A stretch of DNA of 64,000 nt from Brachynemurus nebulosus. Taxonomy: Eukaryota > Arthropoda > Insecta > Neuroptera > Myrmeleontidae. The stretch covers positions 13,804,725 through 13,868,724 of the forward strand of contig JAPWDM010000001.1 of the NCBI GenBank assembly GCA_035578155.1. Reading direction: 5' to 3'. Positions 3,955 to 61,051 of the stretch are shown here, piece after piece. The translations under genes were made by a program, and so were the position numbers. How positions within the stretch are numbered: the stretch's first letter is position 1; each line of letters opens with the position of its first letter. The notes beneath the pieces were generated by a model. The model was not told the origin of the DNA. It ran no database searches and was given only the letters and a program-made list of their open reading frames with translations.

Positions 3955-4810
3955 GGGGACAAAAATGCAACCTTTGTCAGAAACAATTAATTATTAATAA
4001 CGTTAATATGATGGCAACACTATAGTACTTTAAGTTCCCAAAATTTCAATAAAAGTTTGTTTTTAGTTTTTTAGAAATAGTGTAATTTTCAATGTTTTGT
4101 CGTAAGTATAAGCTAATAGTGTATTTTATAGTGGTGTTTTGATTAAATTTTCACGGCAAGTATTTAGAATTATTGTAATCCTAATTGAATCCTTAACGGG
4201 AATAGAATTTATTATAAATTTACAGATTTTGAAAAATCTTAAGAAATTTTGTATTTTAGGTAATAAATAATAAAAATAAGTACATTTTTGTACCTTTAAA
4301 ATTATTTTAAAGTTCCTATTTTATGTCCTATAGGGTCAGTTTTTAGGATTTCATTTAAAAATACTACTTTTTTGCAATTCAAAATGATGGTAGTGTCAGT
4401 CACGTTTTGATCTGTAGTGTCAGTCACGAATTACTTTTCGAATAACTACTTTTCTAAAAAAGTAAAGTCGTTCATTTTATCATTTTCCAATAATCTGTTT
4501 CATATACTTCGGTTAAATATACAATTTAAAATTATAACGTCTGTACAGAGGAAGATTTTCGAAGTTTAAAAACACTCTCGAAAGCGACTTCCTTTTGCAT
4601 GTAGTGTCAGTCACATTTACATTTTATTAAATAAATCATATTTCACAACTTTATTTGTGTACACTTTTTATTACGGAGTCATAATTGGGGTATTAACTAT
4701 AAAACCATGCTAAAATTGAAACTGTAAACATAGTGATATTCGTAATATAAGGCAAAATAAAACGTAAATTGTGTCAAATGTAGAGTCCGTCACATATGGA
4801 ATTGCCCTCC
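3955..4810. mobile_element. Iterated-motif element, copy A (GTGTCAGTCAC family)
   Basis: A shorter relative of the element at 18381-19802. Both share the stretch with 'ctatagtacttt', 'ataagctaa.agtg' and 'attttcacg..aagta', and the right end 'atatggaattgccc'. The motif tagtgtcagtcac occurs at about 4389, 4417 and 4602, with a decayed form near 4784. The right end is clear near 4808; the left end (around 'gggggac') is uncertain. No coding capacity is seen. Confidence 0.6.
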
Positions 4811-5713
4811 GGATCTAATTTTTGAATACAACAAAGAAAAACCCCGTGGCATACCAACATCATCAAAGGCGGGCAAGCACCAAAGTGACTCCATACTCTG
4901 GTGACTTCATCAGAGAAAGTCTTACGGTCCACGGAACACATTTCACATTGATTCCGTAGTACTGTAAGTAAAACATCAAGCTTAGGGTATTTAAACATCA
5001 CCTTAAATCACTCTACCCCCAATGATTACGGTACACAGTTAAGACACCGAAACCGGTCGGAAGAAAAATTTATTATTGATTTCGTAAAGAAATTGTCAAA
5101 TTGTAAATCTGAGTGGTGTAAGTGTATTTTTGATAATAAACATTCATTTGTTAGATCATTTTAAAAAGATTTAAAATCAACAACACAATGTTTAGATCAT
5201 TCTCTCTCTATATCCGTTATTTCTTCAAAAGTATGGATGGTATAGTAAGTACATCTATAGAATGTATTGTGCTTGGAGTATTTTCATTTCTATAGTGTTA
5301 TCTATGTTCAATAACCATAAAACTGATATTAGTTTGAAGTTGATTAAATTAAATCACCCGATTGAATTGTGGTGGCTGACTGTACTAGTAATCCTAATTG
5401 GACTGTCATAAACTGGATTATGGTAATTTCTTTGATTTTAATATGCCGAGCAAATTAAACAATAACAATAACTGAAACGATTGTATTGTGCGCAGTATCG
5501 GTGCATGTCAAATGTGCATTTTTAACGTGTGTTATAAATATAGCGTTTTCGAAATTTAATTTTGATTTTCGTATAATTGTTGAAGAATTTTCATTTTTAC
5601 ATCTATAGGAAACGTCAAATAATTAAGCTAGGTAATGGCTATTATTTTTATTATTTTTGTTGTTAAGGTATGTACTGTAAGATTGCGGTTGTATACTGGA
5701 TTAGTCGTATCTA
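4811..5713. other. No recognised feature
   Basis: AT-rich DNA with chance ORFs only. Confidence 0.5.
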
Positions 5714-6549
5714 CACAGAGAGAAAATTCATCTAAAAATTACTGTGCTCAGCACTACAATCGACGTGTGAAAGGCGTACATATTCAATTTTGTACGGTAA
5801 AAATATAAAAATTATAATTAATCATAGAAAATTTAAAGGATAGAATGTTCTTTCCGTAATATTAGCTCCGTAAAATTGGTAAAACAGCACAGTAAAAAGT
5901 TCCATTGCCGACAGAAAAATATTTTTTAATTGTTTTTCTTACAAAAATTGCCATGCTGTCTTAAAATAGAAGAAAATAGAAAAGAAGGAAAGAAGCTAAT
6001 AGTAGAAAGAAAGAAAGAGAAGGTATCAACGCTGTCACATAGCGAGGCAAGCTGCAGAAGGTATCAACACAATCATATATGAAGGTCACACAGCCAGACT
6101 GGTGGTGTTGCAAGTAGTTGGTCACTGCTGGTGTAGTGTTGTGTATTGTCGAAGCAGTGTTCATTAGAATGTCTTACAGGACGGATGGTCATCGTTTAAT
6201 TCATCATTTTGTTACTTCACTATCTTCAGTATTAGAATATATTGTTGCCAATCATTTTTGTATGCATCATAAAGAATCGAACGTCGGAAAAGATCGGGCA
6301 TCTTCGAAGTTTTTACAGGTACAGTCCAAGCAACATAAGGTTGCGGGTCAGATGCGCAAATGAAAGAGTACGACAAGAATTAAACTATAACATATATGCA
6401 TAAGAGTGTGATAGAAGTTGTGTTAGCACATTAAATTTTACTATGCTATATTTTTTACTTTGGTCGTCGATCGCGCACGCATTATAAGAGAGCATGGTAA
6501 TTTTTCTTAAAATTTTATCTACAAAAATTATATGATTTTTCTCTCCGTG
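5714..6549. mobile_element. TA-flanked TIR element (CACAGAGAGAAAA)
   Basis: The left end is TA-CACAGAGAGAAAATTCAT; the right end, reverse complemented, is TA-CACGGAGAGAAAAATCAT. TA sits directly outside both ends (5712-5713 and 6550-6551), as in Tc1/mariner-type insertions. The interior of about 0.8 kb has no recognisable transposase. It contains a purine-rich gaaag tract (about 5970-6020). Confidence 0.65.
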
Positions 6550-8754: not shown

Positions 8755-9256
8755 GGGCATAGCCAGGTAAGATCTGGAAAACGGCCCTTGACGTAAAATT
8801 GATTGTTTTTATAGAAAATAATAATTCTTAGCCTCAGATACATTCCCGCCAAATTTCAATCCTCCGAGGCTAATAGTTTATGAATACACAAACAGACAAA
8901 ACTTACTGAGCCGACGAAATTACTGAGCCGATTTATTTGAGTTTAATATATATTGTGTACCCACCTTAGGCAAAGTAATAAAAAAAATTAACGTTATATC
9001 CCTTTATTATACTAATTTTTTTTAAATTTTTTAATTTTTTGTAAATTTTTTTTTGCCACTTACGCGTTAGCGACACCCACCATTTTTTGTTCAATAATAT
9101 GTCTCTTAGTACTCTATAACATATATTTTTATGGAAAAATTTCAGTTGGTAGAACATAGTAATATTTCAATACAAATGCATACCATGTTAGGTACTACAT
9201 ATATTACTTATGTATAAAAAGGGCTATAAAGTAAAATATCTACCCTATTTCTAAAA

Positions 9257-9615
9257 TAATACAATTACATACGTTCGTAACTACGATAAACTAGTTTAAG
9301 TTTACAAAAGTCCAACATTATCTGCTGTTTGACTTTTTTTATCAATAAAACAAAATAGATATTGATTTCTCTTTTGCTAGAGTTTTTTCCTTTGTAAGAC
9401 GTTAAGTGAAACTTTGTTAGCTCATACACCACGTCTTACGACGTAAAAAATTTCATACAAGGTTTATTAGCTGTCAAAATAGTATACCAGTTGGTCATTT
9501 CGTTATAATTTCCCATGACCCGTCATCGTGTTAACAAAAGAAGACAAACAGCAAATAAAGCTAGACGTTTGTCTAAGCTTGCTTGTCGTAGTTATGAACG
9601 TATGTAATTTTATTA
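9257..9615. mobile_element. Palindromic MITE nested in the long-TIR element
   Basis: The left tip TAATACAATTACATACGTTC is mirrored by the right tip, which in reverse complement reads TAATAAAATTACATACGTTC, followed by 'ataactacgacaag'. Inner parts also match (tgctgtttgwctt). The element is about 360 bp. It sits exactly at the inner edge of the left long arm. Confidence 0.6.
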
Positions 9616-9843
9616 CAGAAAAAATCCACTTTCTGCACCCCCTTAAGAAGTGCAACAAAAACATCAAGTGAGAGGGGCGAGTTTCTTCAAGTTAGTTATA
9701 TGTACCTACATGTAACTTACCTACATATTTTATAACTACAACAGGTTTTAGCTGGACTGTTGTTATTACTACATATTATTGAAGTTTTTTGTTCCAATTT
9801 ATTAAGTTAATGTTTATTATTATTAAAACAACATAATATTTAA

Positions 9844-10548
9844 GAAGGGGGGGGGATCCTCCAGAACTTTCAAATTTTTCATTAACTTTTTTGCTTTAAA
9901 AGTTCATTTGAATCTTAAAGAATATACTTCCAATGTTTTAAGCCCAATAGAAAGATTATCTTAGATAACTAGAAACTGCTTTTTATTCTACTTTTCAAGA
10001 ACGAAAACTTTTTAATCGCGTTTTTCTCAAGACTGGTTTTTTTCCGCGCCGTGGGACATAACTTAAAAAATTATTAAGATATTAACTTGAGATTTTGTAC
10101 AGATATTTTTAAGATATTGGCCTTTGCACATACCTAAAATTTTGCATAAATTGTTACTATAAACATTATTTATAACAATTTGTTTATATAGAAAAACAGT
10201 AAAATTTTTTTCTTTTTAAGTTTAGTGTGAAAAAATAATTTTTTTCATCAGAAATAGGTATATGCAAAGCGTAGTGACTTATTTTAATAAAATTTTTTTG
10301 CCCGATTGAATTCAGCTGATTACAAGAGACTGGGCATTCCACGGCGGAAATCGAAAGAGTCAACTTTAAACAGCTGTAGCGCCGCAATTTTTTTATGTTT
10401 TTGCATAAAAATTTATTTATTTATTTAGTACATGAGTGAATACATCACAACATGTACTATATTACGTAACTTCATTTGATACAATAAATGTATCCAGTTA
10501 ATCAAAAAAAATTATTAAAAAACCTATTGTCTGGAGTATCCTGCCCCC
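9844..10548. mobile_element. piggyBac-like MITE nested in the long-TIR element
   Basis: TTAA lies at 9840-9843 and 10549-10552. Terminal sequences are related: the left has a G-run then GATCCTCCAGAAC, and the right in reverse complement is GGGGGCAGGATACTCCAGAC. A TTAA duplication with G-rich TIRs points to piggyBac ancestry. Length is about 705 bp with no meaningful ORF. Confidence 0.6.
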
Positions 10549-11348
10549 TTAAGACGTATTATTATTTTAATTTATTTAAATAAGGTTTCTAAAACTTATA
10601 ATTTTTGTTGAGTTATAGATGTAATTTTAATTAGTAAGTATGCTCAGATAATTTTATTGATTTCATTCAGATATTCTGATTCATGGTAAAATTAGCCTTG
10701 AAAATTTTTATCTAATAAGTTAAAACATATTTTTTATAACAAGCCAAAATATATATACTTTAGACGGTTAGAGGAACTCCAAGAACTGCAACTAAGGGGG
10801 GAAGAGAACATTTTATTGGACTCCTTAAAGTTCTACTGTGTTTTAGAAATAAGGCAGATGCTTTACTTTATGGTCCTTTTTATATATAAGTAATATATGT
10901 AGTACCGAACATGGCAAGCATTTGTATTGAAATATTACTATGTTCTACCAACTAAAATTTTTCCGTAAAAATATATGTCATAGAGTACTAAGAGTCATAT
11001 TATTGAACAAAAATGGTGGGTTTCGCTAACGCGTAAGTGCCAAAAAAAATTTACTTAAATTTAAAAATTTAAAAAAAAAATTAGTATAATAAAGGGATAT
11101 AACGTTAATTATATTTTATTACTTTGCCTAAGGTGGGTATACAATATATTTATAACCTCAAATAAATCGGCTCAGTAATTTCGTTAAAAAAAAATTTTTT
11201 TTGAAAATTTTTGTTTGTTTGTGTATTTATAAACTATTAGCCTCTGAAATTTGGCAGGAATGTATCTGGGGTTAAGAAGTATTATTTCCTATAAAAACAA
11301 TCAATTTTGCGTCAAGGGCCGTTTTCCCTATCTTACCCGGCTATGCCC

Positions 11349-12513: not shown

Positions 12514-13754
12514 CCGTCAGTTAGGGCGAATGTAGACGATTTTTTCAGTTTTTTGGCAATAAATTGTTTAGAGTTTATCTAAAAAATTCTAAAAAAATAA
12601 TTTAAATGCTTTAATATCACGAGCATATAGGGCAGTAATAAAAATATCAAAATTGGTACTGAAACATTTTTTTTTTGTTATATAGTGTCTAGATTCGCCC
12701 CTATGTGTGGGGCGAATCGAGACAGAGCTTTATTTGCATTATAAATCACATTCAGTCATGCATATGGGTAAAATCGGACATAAAAAGATAAAAATAGCTG
12801 AATTTCCAATCTGAAAATTCGCTAAACTAAATAACTGCATCAGCGAATGAGTTCTGATGGGTGGAATAAAACATTTTGCATTTAAATGAATTTTATTTCG
12901 ATTTGCCTTTGAGTCTACCATGCAAGGTCGATTTGGGAACATGCAAATATTCAGCAGCTTGTCCGAGCGATTTTCTTTTATTTTTAATATCAGAAAGCAG
13001 GGGCACAACAACTACATATCTACAGGGGATCCAACAAAAATTTAAATTATCAAATTTTTTGATAACGCAGTTCTCCGATAACAATATGGAAAATGTTTTA
13101 ATAAAATGTCGTTTCTGAAAATTTGATTTTCAAATAAAAAATATTAGTAAACCACTAAAAATTTTACTTTTTAATATCAATAAAATAAATTGAAGGAAAA
13201 TTTCCAGGTAATTTTAGGGGGTCCGGACCCCTTGGACCGCCCGGTTGTTGCGCCTCTGTCGCAAAGAGCCCATTTTATGTTATCTAGACTACAGTTTATG
13301 TAGTTTATACCCACTTTCCTTTTATACTGATGCAACATGCTATATGAATTCGCCTCACCTATAGACAATTTTTTGTTAATCAATTTATAAAAAAAAAAAA
13401 AAAATTAAGCACAATACAGCTTTCATTTTTGGTACATATATTGTCAAAAAAACGCCAAACATTTTGTTGCCAGTCCCAACTTTATACATTTAACTGTTTT
13501 TTTGTACAACAGTTTCTTTACAAGATTTCAAAACGCGCGTTATTTTTAAAAATTATAAACAATGCGCCTGTAAAATAACAAAATACAATGATGTCACGTT
13601 CATCGCTTTTCTTTGATGACTAACTCATAACTGACAAAATTCAGTAGCATAAATTGATCTATGACCTTGTACGGTCATAGCACTGACGAAGAAATATCGA
13701 GAGGCAGCTCTGTCTAGATTCGCCCCTACTGTCTCGGTTCGCCCCAACTGATGG
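12514..13754 (-). mobile_element. pogo-like element relic with GGGGCGAATC motifs
   Basis: The element is bounded by TA (12512-12513 and 13755-13756). Ends: left CCGTCAGTTAGGGCGAATGT, right in reverse complement CCATCAGTTGGGGCGAACCG. A related motif, GGGGCGAATCKAGACAGAGC, recurs inside each end (about 12712 on plus; about 13730-13702 on minus), so each terminus carries iterated sites. The minus strand holds a psq-type helix-turn-helix fragment (12893-12991). The catalytic DDE domain is missing, so the copy is non-autonomous. Confidence 0.75.
12893..12991 (-). pseudogene. pogo/Tigger-like transposase fragment, psq HTH
   Basis: The minus-strand reading frame ends with SLGQAAEYLHVPKSTLHGRL followed by KGKSK and a stop. 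This is the classic pogo/Tigger N-terminal CENP-B/psq helix-turn-helix: a basic stretch (KNKRK), then xLxxAAxxxxVPKSTLxxRLKG. In this family the domain binds the element's terminal repeats. Upstream residues do not look like the family, and downstream the frame is broken, so only about 30 residues are recognisable. Its place inside the TA-flanked element supports the assignment. It is a dead fragment, not a functional gene. Confidence 0.75.
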
Positions 13755-13756
13755 TA

Positions 13757-16573: not shown

Positions 16574-16577
<4 letters not shown>

Positions 16578-18060: not shown

Positions 18061-18380
18061 GGGTAAAGCAGGGATAGATGGCCATGATTTTTTCAATAGT
18101 CAATAGTGGAGCCAATTATGGCTAAAAAAAATCTAGAAAATTTACAGAAACTGCTTCATGGACCTATGAACGAAAATACAGGTTCCTTAACAAAGTAATA
18201 TCTTAGTTTAAAAAGATAAACCTTTTATGGTTACGTAACACTTGGCCATCTCACCCGTATATAGAGGTTAGATGGCCATATACCAAAGTGATAGAAGGCT
18301 AGCCCACAAAATCCCCAAAAACCAAGGAGGAATTGTATTAAAGAGTTAATAATTTGTTTACATGTATTTCTACGTACATA

Positions 18381-19802
18381 GGGGCAGTTCCATGCATAGG
18401 GGCAATTCCATGCAAAAGTCTCGAAAAATGAAAAAAATAATTAATTGTTATTGGTAGTAAAAATACTATAGTATGATAGTAGCACTATAGTACTTTTAAG
18501 TTTTCAGAATTGCAGCAAGGATTTGTTTTTTATTTTCTGGCAATACTGTCATTTTCGAAGTGGTGTCGTGAATATAAGCTAACAGTGAATTTGTAATGGA
18601 GTTTTAATTATATTTTCACGATAAGTACTTTGAGTTATTATAATGATTTACTACAAACTGATAAGTCAAGTAACGATTTACCGATAAATAGTCCGTAATT
18701 CATGTAAACACTATGTTTTTAAGAGATATTAAATTGATAAGATTGTAGTTTTGAGTTGTAGTGTCAGTTACAGAATAAACAGAATTTTCTCTCTTACTTT
18801 AGTAAAACGTATCCTTCATCAAGGAAAAATTAAATTTTCCTATTTAACAGAATTACTTACATGATGCCAATATCAAAAATTAAATTAAAATAATTCTTAA
18901 AAAGCTTGAAACATTTTTGTAGTGTTAGTCACACTGTAGAGTCAGTCACGACTGCACATCATAGTGAATTGTAGCATTTTGTGTCTTTTGAAGACATACT
19001 GGAGATACTACCCAATCCTAACCTGATTATTAAAGAGAACATAATTTATTTATAAGTTTCCTAAAAGTCTGGATGTCTTTAAAAAATCTTAATAAATTTT
19101 GTATTTCTGTAAAATAAAAAAAAAATTATTCGCTGTTAAAGGAAATGTTTAAGTTTTTAAAAAGAATTTTACTATTAATATTTCTAAGAATTTTTTGATT
19201 TAAATTAAAAGTGCTGGTTTCCAACATTTTACTAGTGACTTTCTGTGTGATTTAATTCAAAAAATAATTTATAAGTACGTTTTTGTACCTTTAAAATTAT
19301 TTTAAAGTTCTTATTTTATGTCCTGTAATGTCAACTTCTAAGAATTCATTTAAAAATACTACTGTTTTGCAATGCAAAGTGACGGTAGTGTCAGTCACGT
19401 TTTGGTCTGTAGTGTCAGTCACGATTTATTTTTCGAATAACTAATTTCCTAAAAAAGAAAAGTTTTTTATTTTATCATTTTCCAATAATTTGTTTCATAT
19501 ACTTTGGTTAAAGATACAATTTAAAAACATAACACTTGTACAGAGGAAGATTTTCGAAGTTTAAAAACACTCTCGAAAGTGACTGCCTTTTACATGTCAG
19601 TCACATTTATATTTTATTAAATAAATCATATTTAACAACTTTGTATGTGTGCACTTTTTACTAAAGTGGGATAATTTGAGGATCAACTATAAAACCATGC
19701 TAAAATTGAAACTGTAAACATAGTGGTATTCGTAATATGTATAAGGCAAAATAAAACGCAAATTGTGTCAAATGTAAGGTCAGTCATATATGGAATTGCC
19801 CA
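18381..19802. mobile_element. Iterated-motif element, copy B (GTGTCAGTCAC family)
   Basis: TA flanks (18379-18380 and 19803-19804). Left end GGGGCAGTTCCATGC, repeated at once as GGGGCAATTCCATGC; right end in reverse complement TGGGCAATTCCATATATGAC. The motif tagtgtcagtcac, with variants, recurs at about 18759, 18920, 18938, 19386, 19411, 19596 and 19778. About 1.42 kb, no transposase recognised. It is the longer relative of copy A (3955-4810), which lacks part of the left half. Confidence 0.75.
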
Positions 19803-19805
19803 TAG

Positions 19806-19908
19806 GCAAAGGATTCAATAACCTTTTTTATAGCATTTTTTAGATCTTCTTCTGTCCATCTACCTTTAGTGGAACCAGACTTAGGACCGTATTTATTTGG
19901 TAAAAAAA
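19806..19908 (-). pseudogene. pogo-like transposase N-terminal fragment
   Basis: The minus-strand frame reads NKYGPKSGSTKGRWTEEDLK followed by NAIKKVIESFAYG. The signature (R/K)W(T/S)EEDL..AI..V is the start of the DNA-binding region in pogo/Tigger transposases, just before the psq HTH. The frame runs into the inserted copy-B element at 19802. Beyond that insert no HTH continuation was found, so an internal deletion probably preceded the insertion. No start codon in frame was identified. This is a nonfunctional relic. Confidence 0.7.
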
Positions 19909-20301
19909 TATGTTAGAATAAAAACAATATTAAACAGGCGTTTAACTAGCCCAATGATAGTATGGTCATCTCTTACAAACGGCAGAAACAATGACCATAA
20001 CGCGTCAACAAATATGGCGGACAAGAACTTATATAAAAAGAACGTGGTGGTATGGAATTAGACCCAAATAATCCTGAAATACATCACTAAATACTGTTTA
20101 TTTTACTTAAAAATATAAATATATTGACCTACAATACCAAAAAGGTATACTAAAAACTAAAAACATGAAAAATGTTTTTTTTTTAAATAAATAGACGACA
20201 GAACCAACACGTGACACTAGTAACAAAGCTCACTACTGACTATTTGAAAACTACAGCCGTTGGCCATCTCTCCCGTTTGGTCATCTATCCCTGTTTTACT
20301 C

Positions 20302-28384: not shown

Positions 28385-29379
28385 CCGTAAACACGGATTA
28401 CTTGAGCCCTGGGGTGTAACTTGAGCCCAAAACGGAAAAAGTATTATTTTCTGTTTTGTGGTTATAGTAGTCGGAAATAGTAGTAAGTTACATGTTTAGT
28501 TAATAGGTAACAGCAGTAGGTTTACGGTGTTTAAGTTTAGGTAGTTCTGAAAATTGACACTAGAGGTCAGACAAGTGTTGTTTACTCTCTGTTTGAAGTT
28601 GATGTTTTGTTACGTTGCTAACTTTTGACTGTAAAAATAATTGTGATAGCCTACAAAGGAAGGTAAGTGTACAATTTTAATATTTTGTTCATTACTAAAC
28701 TAAATTCAGATATGTTCATATGCCAACTATTTCGTTAATTTTTTAAATGAAGGTTTTGCTAAATCAGTAAAATAACCTTAAAATTAGGGTAACTTGAGCC
28801 CATTATAACTTTGGTATAAAATGGTACATGGATCCAATTAAAAAGGCATGGAAGTGGTCCAAGAACAAGGACGTATTGTACTATAAATGGGAAGATATGG
28901 TCAAGAAAATACCTCCACCTACACTAATCAAAAAAAAAAATTATTCTCTTTAGGTAGACTAAAAGACACATTTTAACTAATAACAGTAATTTGGTATCCA
29001 TAATAATTTTTTGTTTGAAAATTTTTATTCAGTTTCGGTACCTATTCATGTTTTTTGAATAAGTACATGTTTGTATAATTTATTTTAGTTAGTAATCAAC
29101 ATCCTGCATGGTCTCAAACTGTTTTCAAATGGAAATCACTTGGAAATTTAGGTTTAGGCCCAAGTAACCCGATCTTGAGGTTAACTTGAGCCAAAATCTA
29201 AAAAGCTGTAAAATTTATGAACCATAAGAGAAAGATCTATATTATATAATAAACTAACCGTAGTCATATACAGATTAATATACTGAATTTGCTATCCCAA
29301 ATAAATATAACAGTTATGCTCAATTTTTAAAATTATCAGATGATTTGCAAATATGGGCTCAAGTAATGCGTGTTTACGG
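28385..29379. mobile_element. TA-flanked element with AACTTGAGCCC motifs
   Basis: TA flanks (28383-28384 and 29380-29381). Left CCGTAAACACGGATTACTTG, right in reverse complement CCGTAAACACGCATTACTTG. The motif taacttgagccc, or a near form, recurs at about 28416, 28790, 29181 and inverted near 29157 and 29355. About 1 kb. The plus-strand run around 28825-28935 (WYMDPIKKAWKW then YYKWEDMVKKIP) might be a scrap of a transposase C-terminal part, but this is weak. Confidence 0.7.
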
Positions 29380-29797: not shown

Positions 29798-30128
29798 AAA
29801 ATATAAAATAGCAGGAAACTAATTGTAAGTACATTTTAAATATTGAAAAATATTTAAAGTTCGATTACTTTGTCTATTTCACGAATTAAAAATTATTTTT
29901 ATTTTAACTGAACGCGTTTTCAACCTTTCGGTCATCCTAAGAGTAGAAAGATGAAAGATGAATAATTATTTTCATCTTTGTACTCTGAGGATGACCGAAA
30001 GGTTGAAAACGCGTTCAGTAAAAATAAAAATAATTTTTAATTCGTGAAATAGACAAAGTAATCGAACTTTAAATATTTTTCAATATTTAAAATGTACTTA
30101 CAATTAGTTTCCTGCTATTTTATATTTT
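29798..30128. mobile_element. Near-perfect palindromic (foldback) MITE
   Basis: The left half, from 'aaaatataaaatagcaggaa', is repeated inverted in the right half with very few differences over about 150 bp, including 'acgcgttttcaacctttcgg'. The loop is only about 25 bp near 29960. High arm identity indicates either a young insertion or gene conversion between arms. Confidence 0.85.
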
Positions 30129-32028: not shown

Positions 32029-32181
32029 TTTCTACTGGGTAGATGATATATTATAGCTGCTTGTCTCTCAAAATTAATTTTTATGTTATTATAGAAGAGC
32101 AATTCTCAATTAATCAAAATATATTTAGGGTGAATGCGGGAGAGATGCCGCACATTTTGAAAACACTTGATAATTCTTAAA

Positions 32182-32315
32182 GTATGCATTTAATTAAAAA
32201 TAAATTGATACCTCTATTTTCGCCAAAACATTTTAAGCTTGTAATAAAGTATGCATTTAATTAAAAATAAATTGATACCTCTATTTTCGCCAAAACATTT
32301 TAAGCTTGTTTTATA
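32182..32315. repeat. 67-bp tandem duplication
   Basis: Two adjacent copies of a 67-bp segment, starting 'gtatgcatttaattaaaaat', appear identical base for base, so the duplication is much younger than the decayed element that carries it. Confidence 0.9.
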
Positions 32316-32557
32316 TCGCCAAATAAAGTCAATAATGGAATTACAAGCTTATGCATTTAATTGATTTGAAAGTTCGTACGCAATAAAAAAAAAATTGTTC
32401 TTTAAAATTATTTATAAATAATTTTAAATTTTGTGTCATAAAGGATTCATAATTAACATTTTTGTAGAGCCTGCAAAGCGGCGTCTCTCCTACACCTATG
32501 GGAGAGATGCCGCATCAAAAAAAGTGAGACGCCGCATAGTTCATATTAAAAATTTTG

Positions 32558-32760
32558 CATTTTACACATACTGTATGAAATGCCTGCAATATGTAACCAT
32601 TTTTGGCACTTTATACATCTTAACCAGTCAACTTTTTTTTCTGTTTCTGAGTACCTTTCAAAACATTCAATACACAGGCAATCATCATTATTTTCGTTAT
32701 CTTCACTGATATGAGGGCTCTTCCTGATCCATTAATGGATCTTTTATATTTGCGTGGCAT
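32558..32760 (-). pseudogene. pogo/Tigger-like transposase: N-terminus joined to zinc finger
   Basis: From an ATG at 32760 the minus strand reads MPRKYKRSINGSG, the typical start of Tigger/pogo transposases. About 55 bases later, in another frame, 32704-32558 reads DDCLCIECFERYSETEKK then VDWLRCIKCQKWLH, a PHD-like zinc finger (CxxC ... CxxCxxWxH) such as closes many insect pogo-type transposases. The helix-turn-helix and DDE catalytic core between them are gone. A large internal deletion that left start and finish is the simplest explanation. The copy cannot encode transposase. Confidence 0.7.
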
Positions 32761-33228
32761 AATTTACAGTCAAAAAAAAAAAGTTGCATAATTAAGGTAT
32801 ATAAGTCTATGTTTTTAACATGTAATATGATGCGGCTTCTATACCAACTTTAAATGCGGCATCTCTCCTTTTTGTTGGGATAGATGCCGCATGTTGCTAT
32901 AGCAAGCTTAGTGCGGAGTTCCAACCTAAAATTTTATACAGTACTTTTAAAATATACCTAAATTAGTAACAAAACTCATTTTCATTAAAACAATGAAATA
33001 TACATACTTAAATTCGAATGAATTAAATGCTTGATAAAATATTATGTTAAAAAACATACTTTTCAATAATAAAAAGTTGGATAATTACTAAACTGATGGA
33101 CTAATCATAAATGTTACCATATACAGCTTAAATAAGTAACTTATTTTAAACATATAATCCATTATTAGCGCTATCTATCAATCAACGGACGAACTATGGC
33201 TACTGCGGCATCTCTCCCGCCCTTACCC

Positions 33229-43311: not shown

Positions 43312-43847
43312 CAGTATAGCACCGATAATGGAAACATCAGTTTTGGAAATTTTTTGAGAACATCAAATTAGTCAACATCACTTTTGGAAAGTTGCATCAA
43401 AAATGTCAAGTACATAAATACTAAATCCATGTGCAATAGACCATGACGCTTGATTTAATTAAACGAAACAAATAAATATACCGATAATAGTAGTGACAAA
43501 CAACAACAGATCTCAAAGCGTGGGAATGTAGATTTTAATTATTGTACATAGAATGTTTATCAATACATGTATTCTGTTCTGTGACCGTTTTTATTATACG
43601 TAAAATATAAACAAATTATTTCAAAGCAAATTAATAAAACGACAAATGAAAAAATATTTTCTGACATAAATAATTTTTAATTCTTCACTTCTTTTTTTCC
43701 TTTATTAATATTTAAAAAAAAAAACACAGTTTTAATTCAAAACATAATCTTACGATATTTGTGAATCGCATCTGGTCAAAAAGCATCACTTTTGTCAAGC
43801 ACCACTTTTGGAGACTACTTTTTCTTGACAAAACTGCTACTCTACTG
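43312..43847. mobile_element. TA-flanked element with CATCACTTTTGG motifs
   Basis: TA flanks (43310-43311 and 43848-43849). Left CAGTATAGCACCGATAATGG, right in reverse complement CAGTAGAGTAGCAGTTTTGT. The motif rcatcacttttgg, with variants, recurs at about 43336, 43376 and 43783, with 'caccacttttgg' at 43799. No coding capacity; 536 bp. Confidence 0.65.
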
Positions 43848-45348: not shown

Positions 45349-46870
45349 AACCCGTTGTGTAGCATTCTACGCCGCATTTGCATCCGCAGGACAGTTGTGG
45401 ATCTCAGATAACACAACCTGTACCTATCTAAAATAGTTTACCTTGGTAATAGTAAAAGGGTTTCAAAATCGGTCAGTTATTTTATTTTTGACACTTTTAG
45501 GTCCTACTGACATTTCAGACCTTACATAACGTAATCTATATGTATCTAAAATAGCTTAGCTCCCCAACAGTGAAAAAATTTTAAAAATCGGTCGGCTAGT
45601 TTATTTTTGACGCTTTTGGATCCGATGGACCCTGGCAGACTTTACATAACGTAATCTATATTTATCTAAAATAGTTTAGCTCTGTAAGAGTGAAAAAATT
45701 TTCAAAATCGGTCGGTTAGTTTATTTTTACCACTTTTGGGTCCCATGGACCCTGGCGGACCCTAAATAACGTAATGTATGTCTATCTAAAATAGTTAGTT
45801 CCCCAACAGTGAAAAAATTTTCAAAATCGGTCGGTTAGTTTATTTTTGACACTTTTGGATCCATGGACCTTGGCAGACCTTACATAACGTAATCTATATT
45901 TATCTAAAATAGTTTAGCTCTGTAACAGTGAAAAAATTTTCAAAATCGGTCGGTTAGTTTATTTTTGACACTTTTGGATCCCATGGACCCTGGCAGACCT
46001 TATATAACGTAATCTATATTAGCTAAAATAGTTTAGCTCTGTGACAGTGAAAAAATTTTCAAAATCGGTCAGTTAGTTTATTTTTGACACTTTTGGGTTC
46101 TATGGACCTTGGTGGACCTTACATAACGTAATTTATATTTATCTAAAATAGTTTAGCTCTGTAACAGTGAAAAAATTTTCAAAATCGGTCAGTTAGTTTA
46201 TTTTTGACACTTCTGGATCCTATGGACCTTGGCAGACCTTACATAACGGAATCTATATTTATCTAAAACAGTTTAGCTCTGTAACAGTGAAAAAATTTTC
46301 AAAATCGATCAGGCAGTTTATTTTTGACACTTTTGGGTCCTATGGACCGAGGCGGACCTTACATAACGTAATCGATATTTATCTAAAATAGTTTAGCTCT
46401 GTAACAGTGAAAAAATTTTCAAAATCGGTCAGTTAGTTTATTTTTGACACTTTTGGGTCCTGTGGACCCTGGCGGACCTTACATAATGTATTCTAAATCT
46501 ATCTAAAATAGTTTAGCTCTGTAACAGTGAAGAAATTTTTAAAATTGGTCGTTTAGTTTATTTTTTACAATTATGGGATCAGTAAATCCTGGCGAAACTC
46601 ATACAAGTCTAGTACTCTAACAGTAAGAAAAGGGTTCTAAGGATCTCATATAATCTATGGCAGTCCGTACGCTTCTTGCGGACATCATTTAATTAATTAA
46701 TTCAAATACTTTAACTTACTAACTGTGAAAAAATTTTTAAAATCGATTGGTTAATTAATTTCTGGCCGTTTTAGGTCCCGAAAACCTTGACCTCACATAA
46801 AATACCTTAAATACATTTGAAATGGTTTATTCTTTAACATTATTAATTATTAGTGAAAAAATTTTCAAAA
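44990..46870 (+). repeat. Tandem array, about 119-bp units, 9 good plus several decayed units
   Basis: The core 'cagtgaaaaaattttcaaaa' followed by 'tcggtcrgttagtttat' recurs at about 45569, 45690, 45809, 45928, 46047, 46166, 46285, 46404 and 46524 with near-constant spacing. Each unit also holds 'cttttgggtcc', 'tggacc' and 'ttacataacgtaatctat'. Decayed units flank both sides (about 45010, 45138, 45455; 46724, 46852). The (TA)n tract at 45258-45344 interrupts the left part. Noncoding. Confidence 0.9.
45258..45344. repeat. (AT)n microsatellite
   Basis: About 87 bp of uninterrupted AT dinucleotides inside the 119-bp tandem array. Confidence 0.95.
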
Positions 46871-52240: not shown

Positions 52241-52578
52241 AAGATTTTTATCTCAAATAACTTTTTTCCTTGAGATCTTCAAACACATTTAATATTCCCA
52301 ACAAGACACCCTGTGCACTTGCTCGCGTACACAGCATGTGTCAGTGTATATGAAAGTGTGTGAAAGAGCACAGTACAAACACAAGAAATATTTAATGTAT
52401 TGTAAAAATTTTAATTAACATATTTATATTAACTGAACACTGAATTGTACACAGAATGTACGGTAGTGTATTTGTGTACGTAGAACTAGTTTCAAAAAAA
52501 TCTGGCACATTTTTTTTGGAGTTGTGTAATTTAAACTTTAATCATAGAATAGTTAATAGTATATTACGTATATGTATG

Positions 52579-54176
52579 TGTTACTGTGAATGTCCGAAAT
52601 GCAGTGTATCTTAAGATAGACTGGTGTATGTTAACAACCACCACGCTAGTGGGTGAATGACCGTTATTTATTCTCTTCATGGCGATTTCGATCATACACC
52701 AGTGAATGTTAACATATACCACGACGACTTTGGCCATTAATGGTATAGAAAAACCTGTTATTGTTATACAAAAAAATGTTACAATAAATAAAACTATTAA
52801 CAGTCATTTATGAGTCTCCTCTGAACACGGTATTCGAAATTCTAGGTAGAAAGAACTTAGCCATTTTTGAAATATTTTAATAAAATTTTGAAAACAACAT
52901 TCGACAAAGATTCATTTAATCTCGTTTTTTTCTAATTTTTGACTTAACGGTAATATGATAATCTGACGATTTTAAAAGTTTAAAAATACTGGTACTAACG
53001 CGTACAAACTATAGTCTTTCCAATGCTGTTTTCAAGTTTTGAGTGTCTCTAGAGACAACGGAATTCATTCTACCTAAAATATCTCCGAACCGATTGAGAA
53101 CAAACGAAATGAAAACAGCTATAACGGGTACAAATTATACTCTTTCGAATGCGATTTTCAAAATTTCAATATCTACAAAAAACAATAAATTTTGTTCTAC
53201 CTAGAATTTCGAGTATCGTGTTATCTTCCAACTTTTTGATGTACAAACGAAAAATAAAGAGCTACAAACGGGTGCAAACAAATTTTTATCGAATTCTGTT
53301 TACAAATTTTGAATGCCTCTAAAAAAAACCATAAGTTCATTCTACCTCGAGTTTCGAGTAACGTGAATCTTCCAACTCTTTGAGGAAAAAATGAAAAGAA
53401 AGGATTCATAAATGGGTACAAATGAATCTTTATTGAATGCCGTTTTCAAATTTTAAATTTTTCTAAAAACAACCAAATTCATTCTATCTAGAATTTTGAA
53501 TACCGTGTCTTTCCGAACCCTTTGAAACACAAACAAAAATAAAACAGAAGCAAACGGCTCTCTATCGAATGCTGTTTTCAAAATTGAATTATTTCAACAA
53601 ATAATTTAGTTGGTTCTATCTAGAATTTCGGGTATCGTGAATCTCCGAATTTTTTGAGGTACAAATATACATAATAGAAAGACAAAGGTACAAGCGAATT
53701 GCTACCAAAGGATACTAAAAAAATTAAAATATTGGGCGCCAGCCATTTTTAAAATCTTTTTTATCTGTTTACCCTTCGGGCTACAAACAAGATAAAGTGC
53801 GGTACAATCGGGTACAAACGAGTTGTACCTATTACTTATTTTTGAATATTCAATATTTACTAGTTTTAAATATTAGGATGAAATTCCACAAGCTAAATCT
53901 TTGAACAATGAATTATTTTAAAACGAACATAATCTTACTCGTTACAACATAACTTATTTTTAAACAAACAGTGATGTGTTTTAACATTCACGTAATTTTT
54001 AAATCGTTGTTACTAAGATTCACAGAATCGTCTTGGTGTATGTTAACATCCACCGGTGTAGATCCGATTTAAAAAGATTTATTAAAAAAATTCGGACATA
54101 CACCATCGAAATTGGTGATTGTCATCATACACCGGTGTATCTTAACATTCACCAATTTCAGACATTCACAGTAACA
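52579..54176. mobile_element. TIR element with GGTGTATGTTAAC motifs
   Basis: Left TGTTACTGTGAATGTCCGAA, right in reverse complement TGTTACTGTGAATGTCTGAA. Motifs of the form ggtgtatgttaacawccacc occur at about 52623, 52695 (caccagtgaatgttaacata), 54033, 54103, 54128 and 54140, in both orientations, on both sides of the interior. No transposase. The interior is mostly a tandem array (52840-53720). TA-rich flanks make the exact target duplication ambiguous. Confidence 0.7.
52840..53720 (-). repeat. Tandem array, about 120-bp units, about 6-7 units
   Basis: 'cattctacctagaatttcg' followed by 'agtatcgtgaatctycc' recurs at about 52845, 53068, 53190, 53338, 53480 and 53615, with 'acgggtacaaa' and 'tcgaatgctgttttcaaa' in each unit. 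It sits inside the TIR element at 52579-54176. Confidence 0.8.
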
Positions 54177-55983
54177 TATACATCTTATACAAAATCAAAG
54201 TATGACGTCTGAGCATACTGTAATCCAAAGATGACCAGAACATCTTAAAAAATATCGTCATTGTATTTTATGTTCTCCAGTGATTCAGTTAAAACTAGTT
54301 CAATATTATAACTTAATTTTCAATAGTTTTTCACTTTTATTAATTCAGTTAGTATAGGTAGTTATAAATTTCGTTCTGTTTTAATTATTTCTAATAGGTA
54401 AATTTTATTTTTGATACTTAGTATCTTTTTATAGTGAATAGTAGTTTTGCTTTTATTTAATTTAAATTTTACTAATTTTTTTTTTCAGTTTTATTTAGTA
54501 TTGTTTTTTACTCAGTTTAGTTTTATAAAAAAATTTATTTAATCATGTTAGTTGAAATTTAATTTAACACGTTAATAGTCATGAATGGCTGACCTGACTA
54601 ACTGTGACACAACGGTATACCGCGCCAAAAATTCCATATAGAGTGTATTAGGTGTCAAAAAGTGTACTTGTTGGGCGTTTCATCATTATAGGCTTTGATC
54701 GTCAAGATGTTAGCTAAATCTAGTTCATTTTTCTTTATATTATACAATGTGATAATACTCTCTAATGAAAAATTTTAATTTTTTTATTTTATTAATTCAT
54801 ACCAACAATTATTTATCGGTAATGGGCATCCCTGAAAAATTGAATTTTACAATCTAAAGAGATTCAATTGGATTAGTATATAACAAACAAAGATAGAAAA
54901 TACAGTATCGTACCTGTCTACGATACTATTTTAGAATGCAAAAAAATTTCAAAATGAACCATAAGATCTGTCCAACATTTTTATGGAACCAATTCTACCT
55001 AAACCTGCAGTATGTTTGGAAACTGTGCTTGGTTCTCGGTAGTTTTAACAAGTGTAACAGGAGAATAATTTAATTTTCTGATTACATATTAAAATGCTAA
55101 ACAGGACCGTCATGGACACAATACAATACATGCAAATGTTTTGGTTTTGTACACTAATGCTAGGTTGTTTATGAAATTTTGAAATATCACACAGAGTAGG
55201 ATTTTCATCGTCATATTATTATTTTGAGTCGTGAGACTCATGAGTAATGTTCAAAACTGTCTAAGCAACGTTTTACTTTACACTGAATGTAGTAAAGTCA
55301 AATGAATGCAATAGCATTTCGATAACTGTAGGACACAACGCTTAGAGTGGACTTGATCCTTTTACGTTACATCAAATTTCCAAAGTACTTACTTGTTAAC
55401 AGCTTATGAGCCAGAAAAGAACTTGAAAGATATTTTTTTCAGAAATTATACTTTTGCAATCTATTTTGTTGTTTACATAAATTATGCTAATGGAAGCCGA
55501 ATACTTTGCCGAAAATTGACGTATATTTATGTCGACCGATTTTTGGCGACTATTTCATATCATTTCATTACACTATTTCAACTACGGTAGAGAACACTAG
55601 TGTCTCTAGTATCAATTTCAGATTTATCAACCCGATATTCCACGTTACGCCACACGGCGCGAAATGTTTAAATTGTAGTATATTAATTTATTCCTTTTTT
55701 TCTGCTGAATTTTTTAAAAATTAATATGAGTTTCCTGTAATGATTTAGGTAATAAAAAAATTGAGTCTGGGACAAATATTCTCGACGCCATAACTTGACG
55801 TTATGGAAATGCACATATAGGAAAAACAGACTATATTGGCATCAAGTTCGTCTATTTTGCCACAAAAAATATCGCTTCCAAAATCATTACTTTTCGCAAG
55901 ATAAAAATACGTTTTAAAAGAAACGTATGAAGACATCTGCATCCGTTGTCATTTATAACGTTAGATTTTTTGTTACCTTTGAC
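54177..55983. other. No recognised feature
   Basis: AT-rich, probably intron. Only chance ORFs. Confidence 0.5.
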
Positions 55984-56742
55984 AAGGAGACGGCATACCC
56001 TTGGGATCGCCGATTTAGCTGAAATTTTTTTTAGTGATAGAGTACATTTAAAATGTTAATATCCTAAAATAATAGCGCGCACTATTCAGAAAAACCTGTA
56101 AAAAAATATTTAAAAATTTTAATACGGGAAGTAGGTTGCAGGTAAGGTGCTTGCCTCAAACTAGACTGGTCCTACATTCGAAACCGACTCTGTTTAATAA
56201 AACTTTTTTTTTATTTAGAAGAATCTTGTTTATTTATAAAACATTTTATTTAAAATATGTATTTGTAACAAATCTTTAAATAAAAATCAATATAACTTCA
56301 TTTTTTTCAATACTATTTATTTACGATTAATTGATATATATTTTTATAATCTTTCATAATACAGTCATATTTTTATTGGAAAAAGCTTTTAATGTTTTAT
56401 AAGTAAATAAGATTTTCGCTGATAAACAAAAAAAAAAATTAATACAAAAAAAGTTTTGTTGAACATAATCGGTTTTGAACGTATATAGGACAATTCTATT
56501 GTGAGGTCAGAACTTTACCTCCAACCTACTTCGGATCTTGCGTACAACAATATTTTCTAAGCTTATTAAGTAGGTACACTAAAATTAAAATTTAAAATTT
56601 AATTAAAATTTTGAAATATTTTTTTACAGGTTTTTCTGAATAGTGCGCGCTATTATTTTAGGATATTAACATACTAAGTGTACTCTATCACCGAAAAAAA
56701 TTTCAGCTAGATCGGCGACCCCAAGACTGTGCCGTCCCTTTG
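55984..56742. mobile_element. Foldback element, about 760 bp, arms with tRNA-like boxes
   Basis: The two halves are inverted copies of each other over about 350 bp: tips 'aaggagacggcataccctt' and, in reverse complement, 'caaagggacggcacagtctt', then 'tcgccgatytagctgaaatt', 'gatagagtaca' and 'aataatagcgcgcactattc'. Each arm holds a tRNA-like stretch ('gtaggttgcaggtaaggtgc' and 'cattcgaaaccga' on the left; diverged on the right). Arm identity drops toward the centre. Confidence 0.8.
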
Positions 56743-57491: not shown

Positions 57492-57596
57492 GTCGGGAAA
57501 ACCATTTAAAAGGTAAAAATTATTTTCAAAATTTTGAAAAGTATTTTCTGTACTTAAAAGGGTTTATAATTAAGGATTGACACTTTACTAAATTTA

Positions 57597-59095: not shown

Positions 59096-59278
59096 AATAT
59101 ACTATTGCGGTACTTATATTGAATGGAAACCTCAACAAATATACTTTATTGCTATGAATAAATAATATATTACTTACTGCACAAGTGAAGTAATCCAGAT
59201 TTACATAATCGAGCGAGCTAGCTACCTGAGTAAGCCTACAGCCAGTGAGGTAGAGTAAATCGTTCCTTTTTCCATATA

Positions 59279-60121
59279 CGAGGTGTGGTCAAAAAATACC
59301 GTGGATCAATTTTTATAGGAGCAACTACTGACGTTATGTAAATTTGAAATAATAAATCCAGTAGTCTGATTCGCTGAGACAGTTGGTACCACGTTAGGGC
59401 AAGTTATGACTTACAGGCCAATTTCTAGAGCCGGAAGAGTGAGGTTGTGTTTACCGTGTCTGTCGGGCATCATGGATATTGAACAACGTATTAACATTAA
59501 ATTTTGTTTTAAGTTGAAAAAAGTGCCAAAGAAGGCTAGGAAATTTTTAAAATCAGTATATGGCGATAATGTGGTGACTTAGAACACGGTTTACAAGTGA
59601 TATGCACGATTCAAAACCGTAAATGGCTCGACTGAATACGATCAACGATCGGGACGTGCTTCGACCTCAAAAAAAGTTACGAGTTCGTTCCAAGGGCAAA
59701 GACTGTAAACTCCAAATAATACAAGGGCCTACTGTACCATTTCATATCTCACCTTTCCGTGCCTGAGTGAATTTTTGGCACAAAATAAGGTTCTTGTTTG
59801 TCCATATCCAGCTCATTCTCCGGATTTAACTCCATGCGACTTCTGGCGCTTTATAAAAATAAAAATCGTGCTAAAAGGAAAATGTTTTGATATCATTCTT
59901 TTCATTAAGAAAGCCACGACAGAGCAGCTCGAAGCCATTCCAAGGGAAGCCTTCCTAAAATGTTTACAATCATGGAATCAATGTTGGAATAAGAGTATCG
60001 CTAACCGAGGGAAGTATTTTGAAAGAGATTGATTTAAATTTGATGTAAACTTATTACTTTGCTCGTAAGAAAATTATTCACCTTGTTTATCAAAAAATTA
60101 TTATTTTTTAATCATACCACG
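59279..60121 (+). mobile_element. mariner-like element, internally deleted
   Basis: TA flanks (59277-59278 and 60122-60123). Tips: left cgaggtgtggtcaaaaaata, right in reverse complement cgtggtatgattaaaaaata. At about 843 bp it is shorter than the usual 1.2-1.3 kb. It encodes both ends of a mariner transposase (59472-60032) with the middle missing. Confidence 0.85.
59472..60032 (+). pseudogene. mariner transposase pseudogene
   Basis: From ATG 59472 the frame reads MDIEQRINIKFCFKLKKVPK, the mariner N-terminal DNA-binding region, with stops soon after (about 59580 and 59598). It reaches RSGRAS at about 59655, then jumps to LVCPYPAHSPDLTPCDFW (about 59795-59848), which carries the third catalytic Asp of the D,D34D triad (PCD, normally PSD). 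It ends RGKYFERD and a stop at 60032. The segment holding the first two Asp is deleted. SETMAR and mariner transposases share this C-terminal motif. Inactive. Confidence 0.85.
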
Positions 60122-60653
60122 TATAAATACATTATTTTTTTCATTATCAGAACAATAAGCATAACAATAATTAATAAATAATCTGTCAAGAGCCAATCGG
60201 GTTCGCAAAATTAGGATTCCATAAAATAACAGGATGCAAGAAAGTCATTAAATACGTCCAAATGAAATTAAATTATGTAGACAGATCAATGAAATTTGTT
60301 TAATTTAGCGTTATTTTTAGATAAATATTAATATTAATCCGAATTACTTGCTTTCCTGAGAAAATACTGTCATGCTAACCATAAAAATTTTGTAGCTTCA
60401 TAAATACTGCTTGATTAGTGATAAAAAAAATTACATTCTTCAATTTCTTTTAACTTCAGGTACGAATTTACTGAAATTATTATTGCTCTTACTGTTAAGT
60501 ATACTACTGCACAGAGTATTATTATTTGATAGAAAGAAAATATACTCAAATTTTGTGAATCTCAAGTTTTGAAAATACATTGTTTTTTAAAAATAACCTA
60601 TTAGCCGTGACATCCTATTTGTTTATATTTTTAATTCTTTCGTGGTACACCTA
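60122..60653. other. No recognised feature
   Basis: AT-rich spacer between the mariner relic and the Tc1-type MITE. Confidence 0.5.
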
Positions 60654-61051
60654 CAGTCGTCACTCAAGTTATTGACGATGTAACTTATTGACACTGATGG
60701 TAATTTACCTCAAGTTATAGACAAACCATACGTATGTACGCATTCCCACAGTACCCACGAACTTGGGTACATACATATGGTTTGTCTATAACTTGAGGTA
60801 AACTACGATCATTGTCAATATGTCAAATCGTCAATAGACCCGGCAGAAAATGAACTAAGAGATGCGCAGAAACACATTTTAAAATGAATCAGTCTAAGTC
60901 ATTTTGAAGGTAAGGTGGATATCTGTCAAATACATATTGTATCTTATGAACTATAGGGCAGTGAGTTGATTTATTTTACCCACTCCAGCTGCGCAAACGA
61001 AGATTCGTCTCTTACTTCAAAATTTTTTGACTATAACTTGAGTGACGACTG
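60654..61051. mobile_element. Tc1/mariner-type MITE (CAGTCGTCACTCAAGTTAT)
   Basis: TA flanks (60652-60653 and 61052-61053). Both tips read CAGTCGTCACTCAAGTTAT when oriented inward, 19 of 19 identical. A second inverted pair, 'ctcaagttatagacaaacca', centred at about 60747 lies in the left half, so the tip motif CTCAAGTTAT is iterated. 398 bp, noncoding. Confidence 0.85.

What the first reader, a model, noticed from the sequence alone, without database searches (positions are those of the whole stretch)
3955..61051. Many TA-flanked elements share one design: a private terminal motif iterated inside both ends
At least eight elements (12514-13754, 18061-20301, 18381-19802, 28385-29379, 32128-33228, 43312-43847, 52579-54176, 60654-61051), plus the relative at 3955-4810, each repeat their own tip motif several times subterminally, often in both orientations. 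Motifs differ between elements: GGGGCGAATC, GGGATAGATGGCCA, GTGTCAGTCAC, AACTTGAGCCC, GAGAGATGCCGCA, CATCACTTTTGG, GGTGTATGTTAAC, CTCAAGTTAT. Three carry pogo-like transposase scraps. This looks like diversification of pogo-type elements with multi-site DNA recognition, one binding motif per lineage.
Basis: partly seen in the sequence, partly recalled or inferred. Interest (0 to 1): 0.75.

Follow-up and report, generated by a model that had tools for sequence, protein, structure and literature searches.

The report
Jumping genes sharing one docking layout
This insect-like DNA is littered with small jumping genes of the pogo type whose likely docking sites for the jumping enzyme keep nearly the same positions from family to family, while the letters of the docking site differ between families together with the enzyme's DNA-reading part.

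Summary
E1, E2, E4 and E5 are TA-flanked transposon families whose tip motif recurs internally; genome-wide the motifs are enriched about 30-fold or more over reversed controls. E1, E2 and E5 carry pogo-type transposase scraps; intact relatives encode HTH_psq + HTH_Tnp_Tc5 + DDE_1 transposases.
New: the arrays share one asymmetric layout. In 12 of 12 intact-transposase lineages with both ends read, the 3' end has an inverted site at 182-185 bp and a direct one at 207-209 bp; the 5' end has a tandem pair at 10 and 27-28 bp plus a far cluster. Motifs mostly differ between lineages, and spacers are mostly at random identity. HTH helix sequence covaries with motif; Arg at one helix position goes with GGCC in 6 of 6 lineages, neither in 11 others (rule loosened twice while reading).
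Not supported: E3/E0 repeat a motif that is not their tip; E7 uses palindromic sites; E6 and E8 stay unassigned. Binding and function are inferred.

The parts
12514..13754 (.). E1, non-autonomous pogo-type element; sites GGGGCGAATCNAGACAG at 12523(+), 12685(-), 12709(+), 13710(-), 13729(-)
   Evidence: sites; ends in 18 printed copies; 14-copy consensus
12896..13039 (-). HTH_psq scrap of the E1 transposase, reading from the tandem-site end to the inverted-pair end
   Evidence: same region passes the Pfam HTH_psq cutoff in copy L028 (24.9 vs 20.4 bits), below it in L025 and L027
18061..20301 (.). E2, interrupted by E3; sites GGGATAGATGGCCA at 18071(+), 18243(-), 18265(+), 18288(+), 20261(-), 20278(-)
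   Evidence: copies, layout
19814..19903 (-). N-terminal transposase scrap in E2
   Evidence: profile of 14 homologues, 16.1 bits, E 0.00018
18381..19802 (.). E3, inserted in E2 with TA on both sides; iterated motif TGTAGTGTCAGTCAC (not its tip GGGGCARTTCCAT)
3955..4800 (.). E0, diverged relative of E3 (88% over 535 bp); inward sites 7, 186, 373, 397 bp from the right end
28385..29379 (.). E4; sites TTAACTTGAGCCC-type at 28395(+), 28414(+), 28787(+), 29156(-), 29179(+), 29355(-); tandem end is the left one
   Evidence: 11 of 21 copies (window included) fitted the end pattern
32128..33228 (.). E5; sites GGGAGAGATGCCGCA at 32138(+), 32477(-), 32500(+), 32522(+), 32831(-), 32855(-), 32877(+), 33204(-); left cluster lies 166 bp further in than in most copies
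   Evidence: 14 of 21 copies with both ends; 67-bp duplication 32178-32309
32564..32707 (-). C-terminal PHD-like transposase scrap in E5
   Evidence: profile of 14 homologues, 42 bits, E 2.6e-12
43312..43847 (.). E6, weak CAGT-tipped element with degenerate CATCACTTTTGG-type repeats; class not settled
52577..54178 (.). E7; palindromic sites GGTGNATGTTAACATNCACC at 26, 46, 124 bp (left) and 25, 45, 124, 186 bp (right); superfamily not shown
60654..61051 (.). E8, 398-bp CAGT-tipped element; sites CTCAAGTTATTGAC-type at 60663(+), 60679(+), 60709(+), 60784(-), 61029(-)
   Evidence: genome copies not retrieved

Best explanation
E1, E2, E4 and E5 are non-autonomous (MITE-like) derivatives of a large group of pogo-type TA-target transposons. 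Each lineage's transposase carries an N-terminal HTH_psq plus HTH_Tnp_Tc5 DNA-binding region that reads a ~15-bp site, for most lineages a private one. The outermost site, 9-10 bp inside the TA, would place the DD36D catalytic domain on the cleavage point; a tandem second site marks the 5' end; an inverted-then-direct cluster at ~184/207 bp (3' end) and a cluster near ~340-415 bp (5' end) would nucleate and hold the two ends together. Shown from sequence: elements, TA ends, sites, layout, domains, helix-motif covariation. Inferred: that the transposase binds these sites, that the layout is needed for synapsis and end choice, and that MITEs move because they keep the arrays. Evolution: the motif is rewritten along with the recognition helix, while the spacing is held.
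For: TA-bounded families. Transposase scraps in E1, E2, E5. Intact transposases: L032 631 aa, DDE_1 91.7 bits, HTH_psq 38.5, HTH_Tnp_Tc5 31.4; 74 matches in the genome. Layout in intact lineages: 3' end 182-185 inverted and 207-209 direct in 12 of 12; 219 matched inner-site pairs vs null mean 11.6, maximum 30 of 5000. Same plan in the MITE families: E2 182-184O in 6 of 11, 204-207S in 6 of 11, 27S in 9 of 11; E5 183O in 10 of 14, 206S in 12 of 14, inverted site at 330-354 from the other end in 12 of 14; E1 170-188O in 13 of 18, 193-212S in 16 of 18; E4 186-187O and 209-210S in 7 of 11 each. Spacers mostly at random identity; E1, E2, E4, E5 share no blastn match. Covariation: Mantel r 0.47, p 0.0001, 13 lineages; Arg with GGCC 6 of 6, neither in 11 of 11 others, p 8e-5. 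In the predicted model this residue (46) is the first of the third HTH helix, 46-54.
Against: No binding or transposition data. Site calls come from a lenient, iterated matrix seeded on the tip site, so the 10-bp site is given, not found. Lineages share ancestry, so permutation and Fisher p-values overstate independence. Residues before the helix also correlate with the motif (r 0.24, p 0.033). The Arg rule was noted as TGGCCA and loosened to GGCCA for k and to GGCC for s; the six lineages read afterwards give p 0.067 alone. Some spacer pairs keep similarity (7 of 55 at the 3' end, 4 of 55 at the 5' end exceed z = 2). Exceptions: lineage e has the far 5' site at 399 and E4 at about 402 instead of ~365; only 6 of 14 E5 copies have the tandem 27-bp site; E1 copies L011 and L021 have displaced clusters. 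Lineages p, a and c have nearly one motif. Sites are not better conserved than the rest in E1 copies (0.893 vs 0.917). E4's transposase was not found, E1 has only an HTH scrap, and E2's own N-terminal scrap differs from the fetched relative.
Confidence: 0.82

Rival explanations
1. The inner sites are regulatory: the transposase (or a host factor) binds them to control its own promoter, and only the tip sites matter for transposition.
For: The larger arrays lie at the 5' end, upstream of the transposase start. Not tested further.
Against: The 3' end has its own cluster at a fixed distance in 12 of 12 lineages, and gene-less MITE copies keep arrays at both ends, which promoter control alone does not predict.
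Confidence: 0.15
2. The shared layout is only inheritance from a common ancestor and spacing is not under selection.
For: All fetched lineages encode homologous transposases (31-100% identity to P0002 among the listed matches); residual spacer similarity exists in a few pairs.
Against: Spacers are at random identity in most pairs, yet the 3' distances vary with a standard deviation of about 1 bp over 12 lineages; unconstrained spacers would be expected to collect indels.
Confidence: 0.1
3. The repeats are tandem or satellite growth, or chance matches, with no relation to transposase binding.
For: Tandem copies exist (third tandem site in L019; 67-bp duplication in the window's E5).
Against: Motif enrichment over reversed controls, shared positions and orientations, and covariation with the HTH.
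Confidence: 0.02
4. The nine elements are a mixture: E1, E2, E4, E5 are the pogo group, while E3/E0, E7 and perhaps E6, E8 belong to other TA-target families that also use repeated sites.
For: E7's sites are palindromic and symmetric; E3/E0 iterate a non-tip motif; no pogo transposase scraps found in these in the window.
Against: E0's inward sites at 7, 186, 373, 397 bp resemble the common positions; E6 and E8 have the CAGT tip that I recall for pogo.
Confidence: 0.6

Closest known systems
pogo superfamily; insect Fot-like/Tigger-like pogo elements (PMC7386202, PMC7325037, PMC8472432: passages seen)
   Same: TA duplication, short TIR, N-terminal HTH (psq) plus HTH_Tnp_Tc5, DDE_1 catalytic domain, elements of 1.2-5.2 kb.
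   Different: In the main texts, 'subterminal', 'direct repeat' and 'binding site' do not occur in PMC7325037 or PMC8472432, nor 'subterminal' and 'PHD' in PMC7386202. Here an ordered array of 7-11 called sites, an asymmetric layout and a C-terminal PHD-like finger are seen.
Drosophila pogo (Wang, Hartswood and Finnegan 1999; recalled, paper not held)
   Same: Recalled: an N-terminal HTH binds a 12-bp sequence present in two copies at each end, the outer copies near the tips.
   Different: Here more sites, different numbers at the two ends, an inverted plus direct cluster at ~184/207 bp, and a layout shared by lineages with different motifs.
IR/DR transposons such as Sleeping Beauty (PMC7827188, passages seen)
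   Same: Outer and inner transposase sites within ~220 bp of each end; inner sites organise the synaptic complex, cleavage happens at the outer ones; left and right ends differ.
   Different: Other transposase family (PAIRED-like domain); two direct sites per end plus a half site on the left, no inverted cluster and no tandem tip pair.
Subterminal-repeat transposons of other superfamilies (hAT, P, CACTA; recalled)
   Same: Many short transposase sites near the ends.
   Different: Different superfamilies and target duplications; I recall no comparable base-pair layout kept across rewritten motifs.

Membership tests
pogo superfamily (IS630-Tc1-mariner) | TA target duplication | tested here: met
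   TA at the ends in most printed copies of E1, E2 and E5. For E4 and the intact lineages the end search itself required TA; flanks outside differ
pogo superfamily (IS630-Tc1-mariner) | N-terminal HTH (psq or CENP-B type) plus HTH_Tnp_Tc5 | tested here: met
   P0002 from L032: HTH_psq 38.5 bits, HTH_Tnp_Tc5 31.4 bits. In window elements only scraps: E1 HTH, E2 N-terminus, E5 C-terminus
pogo superfamily (IS630-Tc1-mariner) | DDE_1 domain with a DDxD triad | tested here: met
   DDE_1 91.7 bits; D183, D291, D328 invariant in 14 aligned proteins, 36 residues between the last two; not tested for E1 and E4
pogo superfamily (IS630-Tc1-mariner) | Short TIR | tested here: met
   20-24 of 24 matching bases next to TA in 10 of 10 lineages
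pogo superfamily (IS630-Tc1-mariner) | Transposase groups with pogo subfamilies in a tree | not tested
pogo superfamily: E3/E0, E6, E7, E8 | pogo-type transposase or scraps | tested here: not met
   No profile match in these window elements (whole window) and no Pfam pogo match (E7); genome copies were not read, so they are not filed under pogo
Sleeping Beauty-type IR/DR transposons | Tc1-type transposase with two direct sites per long TIR | tested here: not met
   Transposase is DDE_1/psq and the inner 3' cluster contains an inverted site; it resembles IR/DR in working plan only

The most novel reading that the evidence does not exclude
A pogo transpososome whose architecture acts as a fixed ruler: at the 3' end site orientation and spacing are kept to about a base pair between lineages whose motifs and spacers have diverged, so the DNA-reading code can be swapped by coordinated replacement of the recognition helix and the 7-11 sites of an element, giving new mutually blind transposon lineages within one genome. 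A one-residue rule (Arg at helix position 1 with GGCC) is the first letter of that code.
Probability: 0.5. Interest if true: 0.82.

Novelty: new variant of a known kind. Interest (0 to 1): 0.68.

Why it matters
It turns the question of how selfish DNA escapes cross-mobilisation and founds new lineages into something testable: one genome holds many lineages with the same array plan, different motifs and matching changes in the HTH. That is natural material for a psq-HTH recognition code and for finding which spacings a eukaryotic transpososome cannot change. It also suggests that a simple TIR description misses much of a pogo end, and gives a layout by which MITEs could be assigned to their parent type.

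Tried and rejected
Six-frame Pfam scans of the whole window and of five elements found no pogo domain; the scraps needed a profile of 14 relatives or the E1 copies. IMG/VR gave no confirmed relative of the transposase. Site conservation in E1 copies was not higher than elsewhere (0.893 vs 0.917), so that argument was dropped. Lineage l gave no usable 3' end; its 5' tandem pair was read by eye only and is left out of the counts. The E8 genome search failed: the answered request used a wrong spacing, the corrected one did not complete. E1's cognate lineage could not be fixed: its motif core resembles lineage e, but its HTH scores best against i and n. A nucleosome-sized reading of the ~174-bp gap was considered and is untested. 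Rows dropped before counts: one search used only copies in which both ends matched my end patterns (E2 11 of 20, E5 14 of 21, E1 18 of 21); one search used 11 of 21; one search used 14 of 21 E1 copies; one search left out lineage k (5' end only). For lineages r, v, f, s, k (and the seed of q) the tandem pair itself was used to find or seed the 5' end, and the E4 end pattern demanded two tandem sites, so the pair is not independent evidence there. Of the 74 matches, 18 were examined by fetched flanks or loci (p, a, c, d, e, g, h, i, j, m, n, q, k, l, r, v, f, s); r has the same helix as h and is not an independent lineage.
Full report
WHAT THE WINDOW IS. The 64-kb window lies in contig C1 (196 Mb) of a 960-Mb assembly. 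It is AT-rich, and one minus-strand open frame near 50 kb looks like an immunoglobulin-domain exon of an insect (weak I-set match, E 0.054; the rest by eye). Of the 120 listed relatives of the transposase described below, every one with a named species is from an insect. The organism was not identified.

THE ELEMENTS. A scan for inverted repeats abutting TA recovers E1, E2, E3, E4, E5, E7 and E8, not E6. With the motifs as seeds every element has more sites than shuffles give on average; with the motif left free, E2, E4, E5, E7 and E8 beat all 100 shuffles, E1 98 of 100, and E6, E0 and E3 are not convincing.

GENOME COPIES. Motif counts against the reversed motif are 2659 vs 68 (E1), 159 vs 2 (E2), 7330 vs 0 (E5) and 3694 vs 127 (E4). 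Twenty regions were fetched for each of the four families. E1 copies begin TA-CCGTCAGTTGGGGCGAATC and end with two tandem sites before TA, with unrelated flanks. E2 copies begin TA-GGGTAAARCAGGGATAGATGGCCA, E5 copies TA-GGGTGAATGCGGGAGAGATGCCGCA, E4 copies TA-CCGTAA...TTACTTGAGCCC; a minority of ends has lost the TA or is damaged. These are real transposon families with TA targets.

TRANSPOSASE. E1 keeps a pogo-type HTH_psq piece (window 13039-12896 minus), which passes the Pfam cutoff in one of three copies tested. A profile of 14 relatives finds an N-terminal piece in E2 (19903-19814 minus) and a C-terminal piece in E5 (32707-32564 minus). In two E2-like elements (L031, L032; [quoted passage not shown] the PDB match to a PHD finger is weak (E 0.02; not found with the profile at E 0.1). 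In the host genome this protein has 74 matches at 31-100% identity (70 of 2754 candidates were scored, so this is a lower bound).

LAYOUT. For ten further lineages I fetched only the flanks. All ten show TIRs of 20-24 of 24 bases next to TA. Sites were found with a position matrix seeded on the two tip sites and a lenient threshold, so the site at 10 bp is given. With P0002's own element and lineage q, 12 lineages have both ends. At the 3' end they have an inverted site at 182-185 bp and a direct site at 207-209 bp in 12 of 12, and a further direct site at 229-231 bp in 7 of 12. At the 5' end they have a second direct site at 27-28 bp in 12 of 12 (in q it was used as a seed), a direct site at 363-369 bp in 11 of 12 (399 in lineage e) and one at 387-394 bp in 9 of 12; inverted sites lie at 340-346 bp in 4 of 12 and at 404-415 bp in 7 of 12. 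Counting inner sites that agree in position (within 3 bp) and orientation gives 219, against a mean of 11.6 and a maximum of 30 in 5000 random placements. Five more 5' ends (k, r, v, f, s) show an inner direct site at 364-377 bp; there the tandem pair was used to find the end, v's motif is weak, and r has the helix of h.

THE SAME PLAN IN THE WINDOW'S FAMILIES (S direct, O inverted, distance from TA). E2: 182-184O and 204-207S in 6 of 11 copies each, 27S at the other end in 9 of 11. E5: 183O in 10 of 14, 206S in 12 of 14; at the other end 27S in 6 of 14 and an inverted site at 330-354 in 12 of 14. E1: 170-188O in 13 of 18, 193-212S in 16 of 18, and usually a tandem pair at 9 and 28 (all). E4: 186-187O and 209-210S in 7 of 11 each, about 402S at the tandem end in 6 of 11 (where the tandem pair was demanded). 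The window's E5 differs by about 166 bp extra before its left cluster (349O, 372S, 394S). E1, E2, E4 and E5 show no blastn match to one another at E 0.01. Ungapped identity of the spacers between 11 lineages is mostly that of rotated controls: 7 of 55 pairs at the 3' end and 4 of 55 at the 5' end exceed z = 2. So distance and orientation are retained where sequence mostly is not. The transposase scraps of E1, E2 and E5 are all read from the 5' (tandem-end) side, as in the intact elements; the window's E5 itself has only a single site at that end.

ONE MOTIF PER LINEAGE, READ BY THE HTH. Consensus sites include GGGAGAGATGGCCAT (p), GGGAGAGATGGACCG (d), GGGCGAATCGGATCA (e), GGGCAAAGTGGCCAC (g), GGGTAATACCACGCA (h), GGGGAATTCCGCGCG (i), GGGCATGACGGGGTC (m), GGGTAATGGCAGTCA (n), GGGCAAGATGGAAGG (j) and GGACAAAATGACATA (q); p, a and c have nearly the same motif, and h and i are close. 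In 13 lineages the distance between HTH segments correlates with the distance between motifs (Mantel r 0.47, p 0.0001); the preceding 16 residues do so less (r 0.24, p 0.033; partial 0.42). After 11 lineages I noted that Arg following IP/VP goes with TGGCCA. Of six lineages read later, k (Arg) has AAGGCCA and s (Arg) has AAGGCCT, so the rule was loosened to GGCCA and then GGCC; q, r, v and f have neither. In the loosened form it is 6 of 6 with Arg and 0 of 11 without (p 8e-5; the later six alone p 0.067). The AlphaFold model (mean pLDDT 68, block means 79-89 over residues 21-60) places this residue, 46, as the first of helix 46-54, the third helix of the HTH. Shared ancestry inflates these p-values.

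MECHANISM. The likely reading is that the transposase binds the sites, that the tip site aligns the catalytic domain with the TA, and that the inner clusters build the paired-end complex and tell the 5' from the 3' end, much as inner and outer sites do in Sleeping Beauty (PMC7827188, passages). MITEs would stay mobile by keeping the arrays. Binding, synapsis and mobility are inferred.

WHAT DOES NOT FIT. E3 and E0 iterate TGTAGTGTCAGTCAC, which is not their tip; 510 genomic hits, often 187 bp apart; E0's inward sites at 7, 186, 373 and 397 bp recall the common positions but all have one orientation. E7 has palindromic sites, nearly symmetric at the two ends, 184 in the genome. E6 and E8 remain unassigned.

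KNOWN OR NEW. Pogo-type membership of the transposase rests on domains and the DDD triad (definitions from passages of PMC7386202 and PMC7325037). Two sites per end in Drosophila pogo are recalled, not read. My searches of open papers: 'subterminal repeats' + pogo + transposon, 0 papers; pogo + 'PHD finger' + transposase + insect, 0; broader ones listed no title that names this layout, but only five of the listed papers were looked into, as passages (PMC7325037, PMC9976928, PMC8472432, PMC7827188, PMC7386202). Subscription papers and Repbase were not searched, so absence from print is not claimed.

Noticed in passing
window 59487-59867: Mariner-type transposase remnant (HTH_48 and DDE pieces, with stops).
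   Followed up: partly
window 29802-30124 and 56060-56665: Further TA-flanked inverted repeats, identical over 16 of 16 bases and beyond; not studied.
   Followed up: no
window 8760-11343: Long interrupted inverted repeat of about 2.6 kb with a smaller inverted repeat (9260-9612) inside; class unknown.
   Followed up: no
window 45425-46577: Tandem array of a 120-bp unit, 9.6 copies, 88% matches.
   Followed up: no
window 32178-32309: Perfect 67-bp tandem duplication inside E5 that accounts for part of its displaced left cluster.
   Followed up: partly
L032 (host contig C84): An E2-like element with an intact frame sits inside a (TA)n microsatellite; a 99% identical intact frame lies on C59, suggesting recent movement.
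   Followed up: no
G000 C96, C1, C129, C116: Four places match the query with a 659-aa open frame and near-equal scores, another sign of recent activity of a different pogo lineage.
   Followed up: no
L019, tandem end: Three tandem tip sites at 19-bp spacing instead of two, so the number of tip sites can change by unit steps.
   Followed up: no
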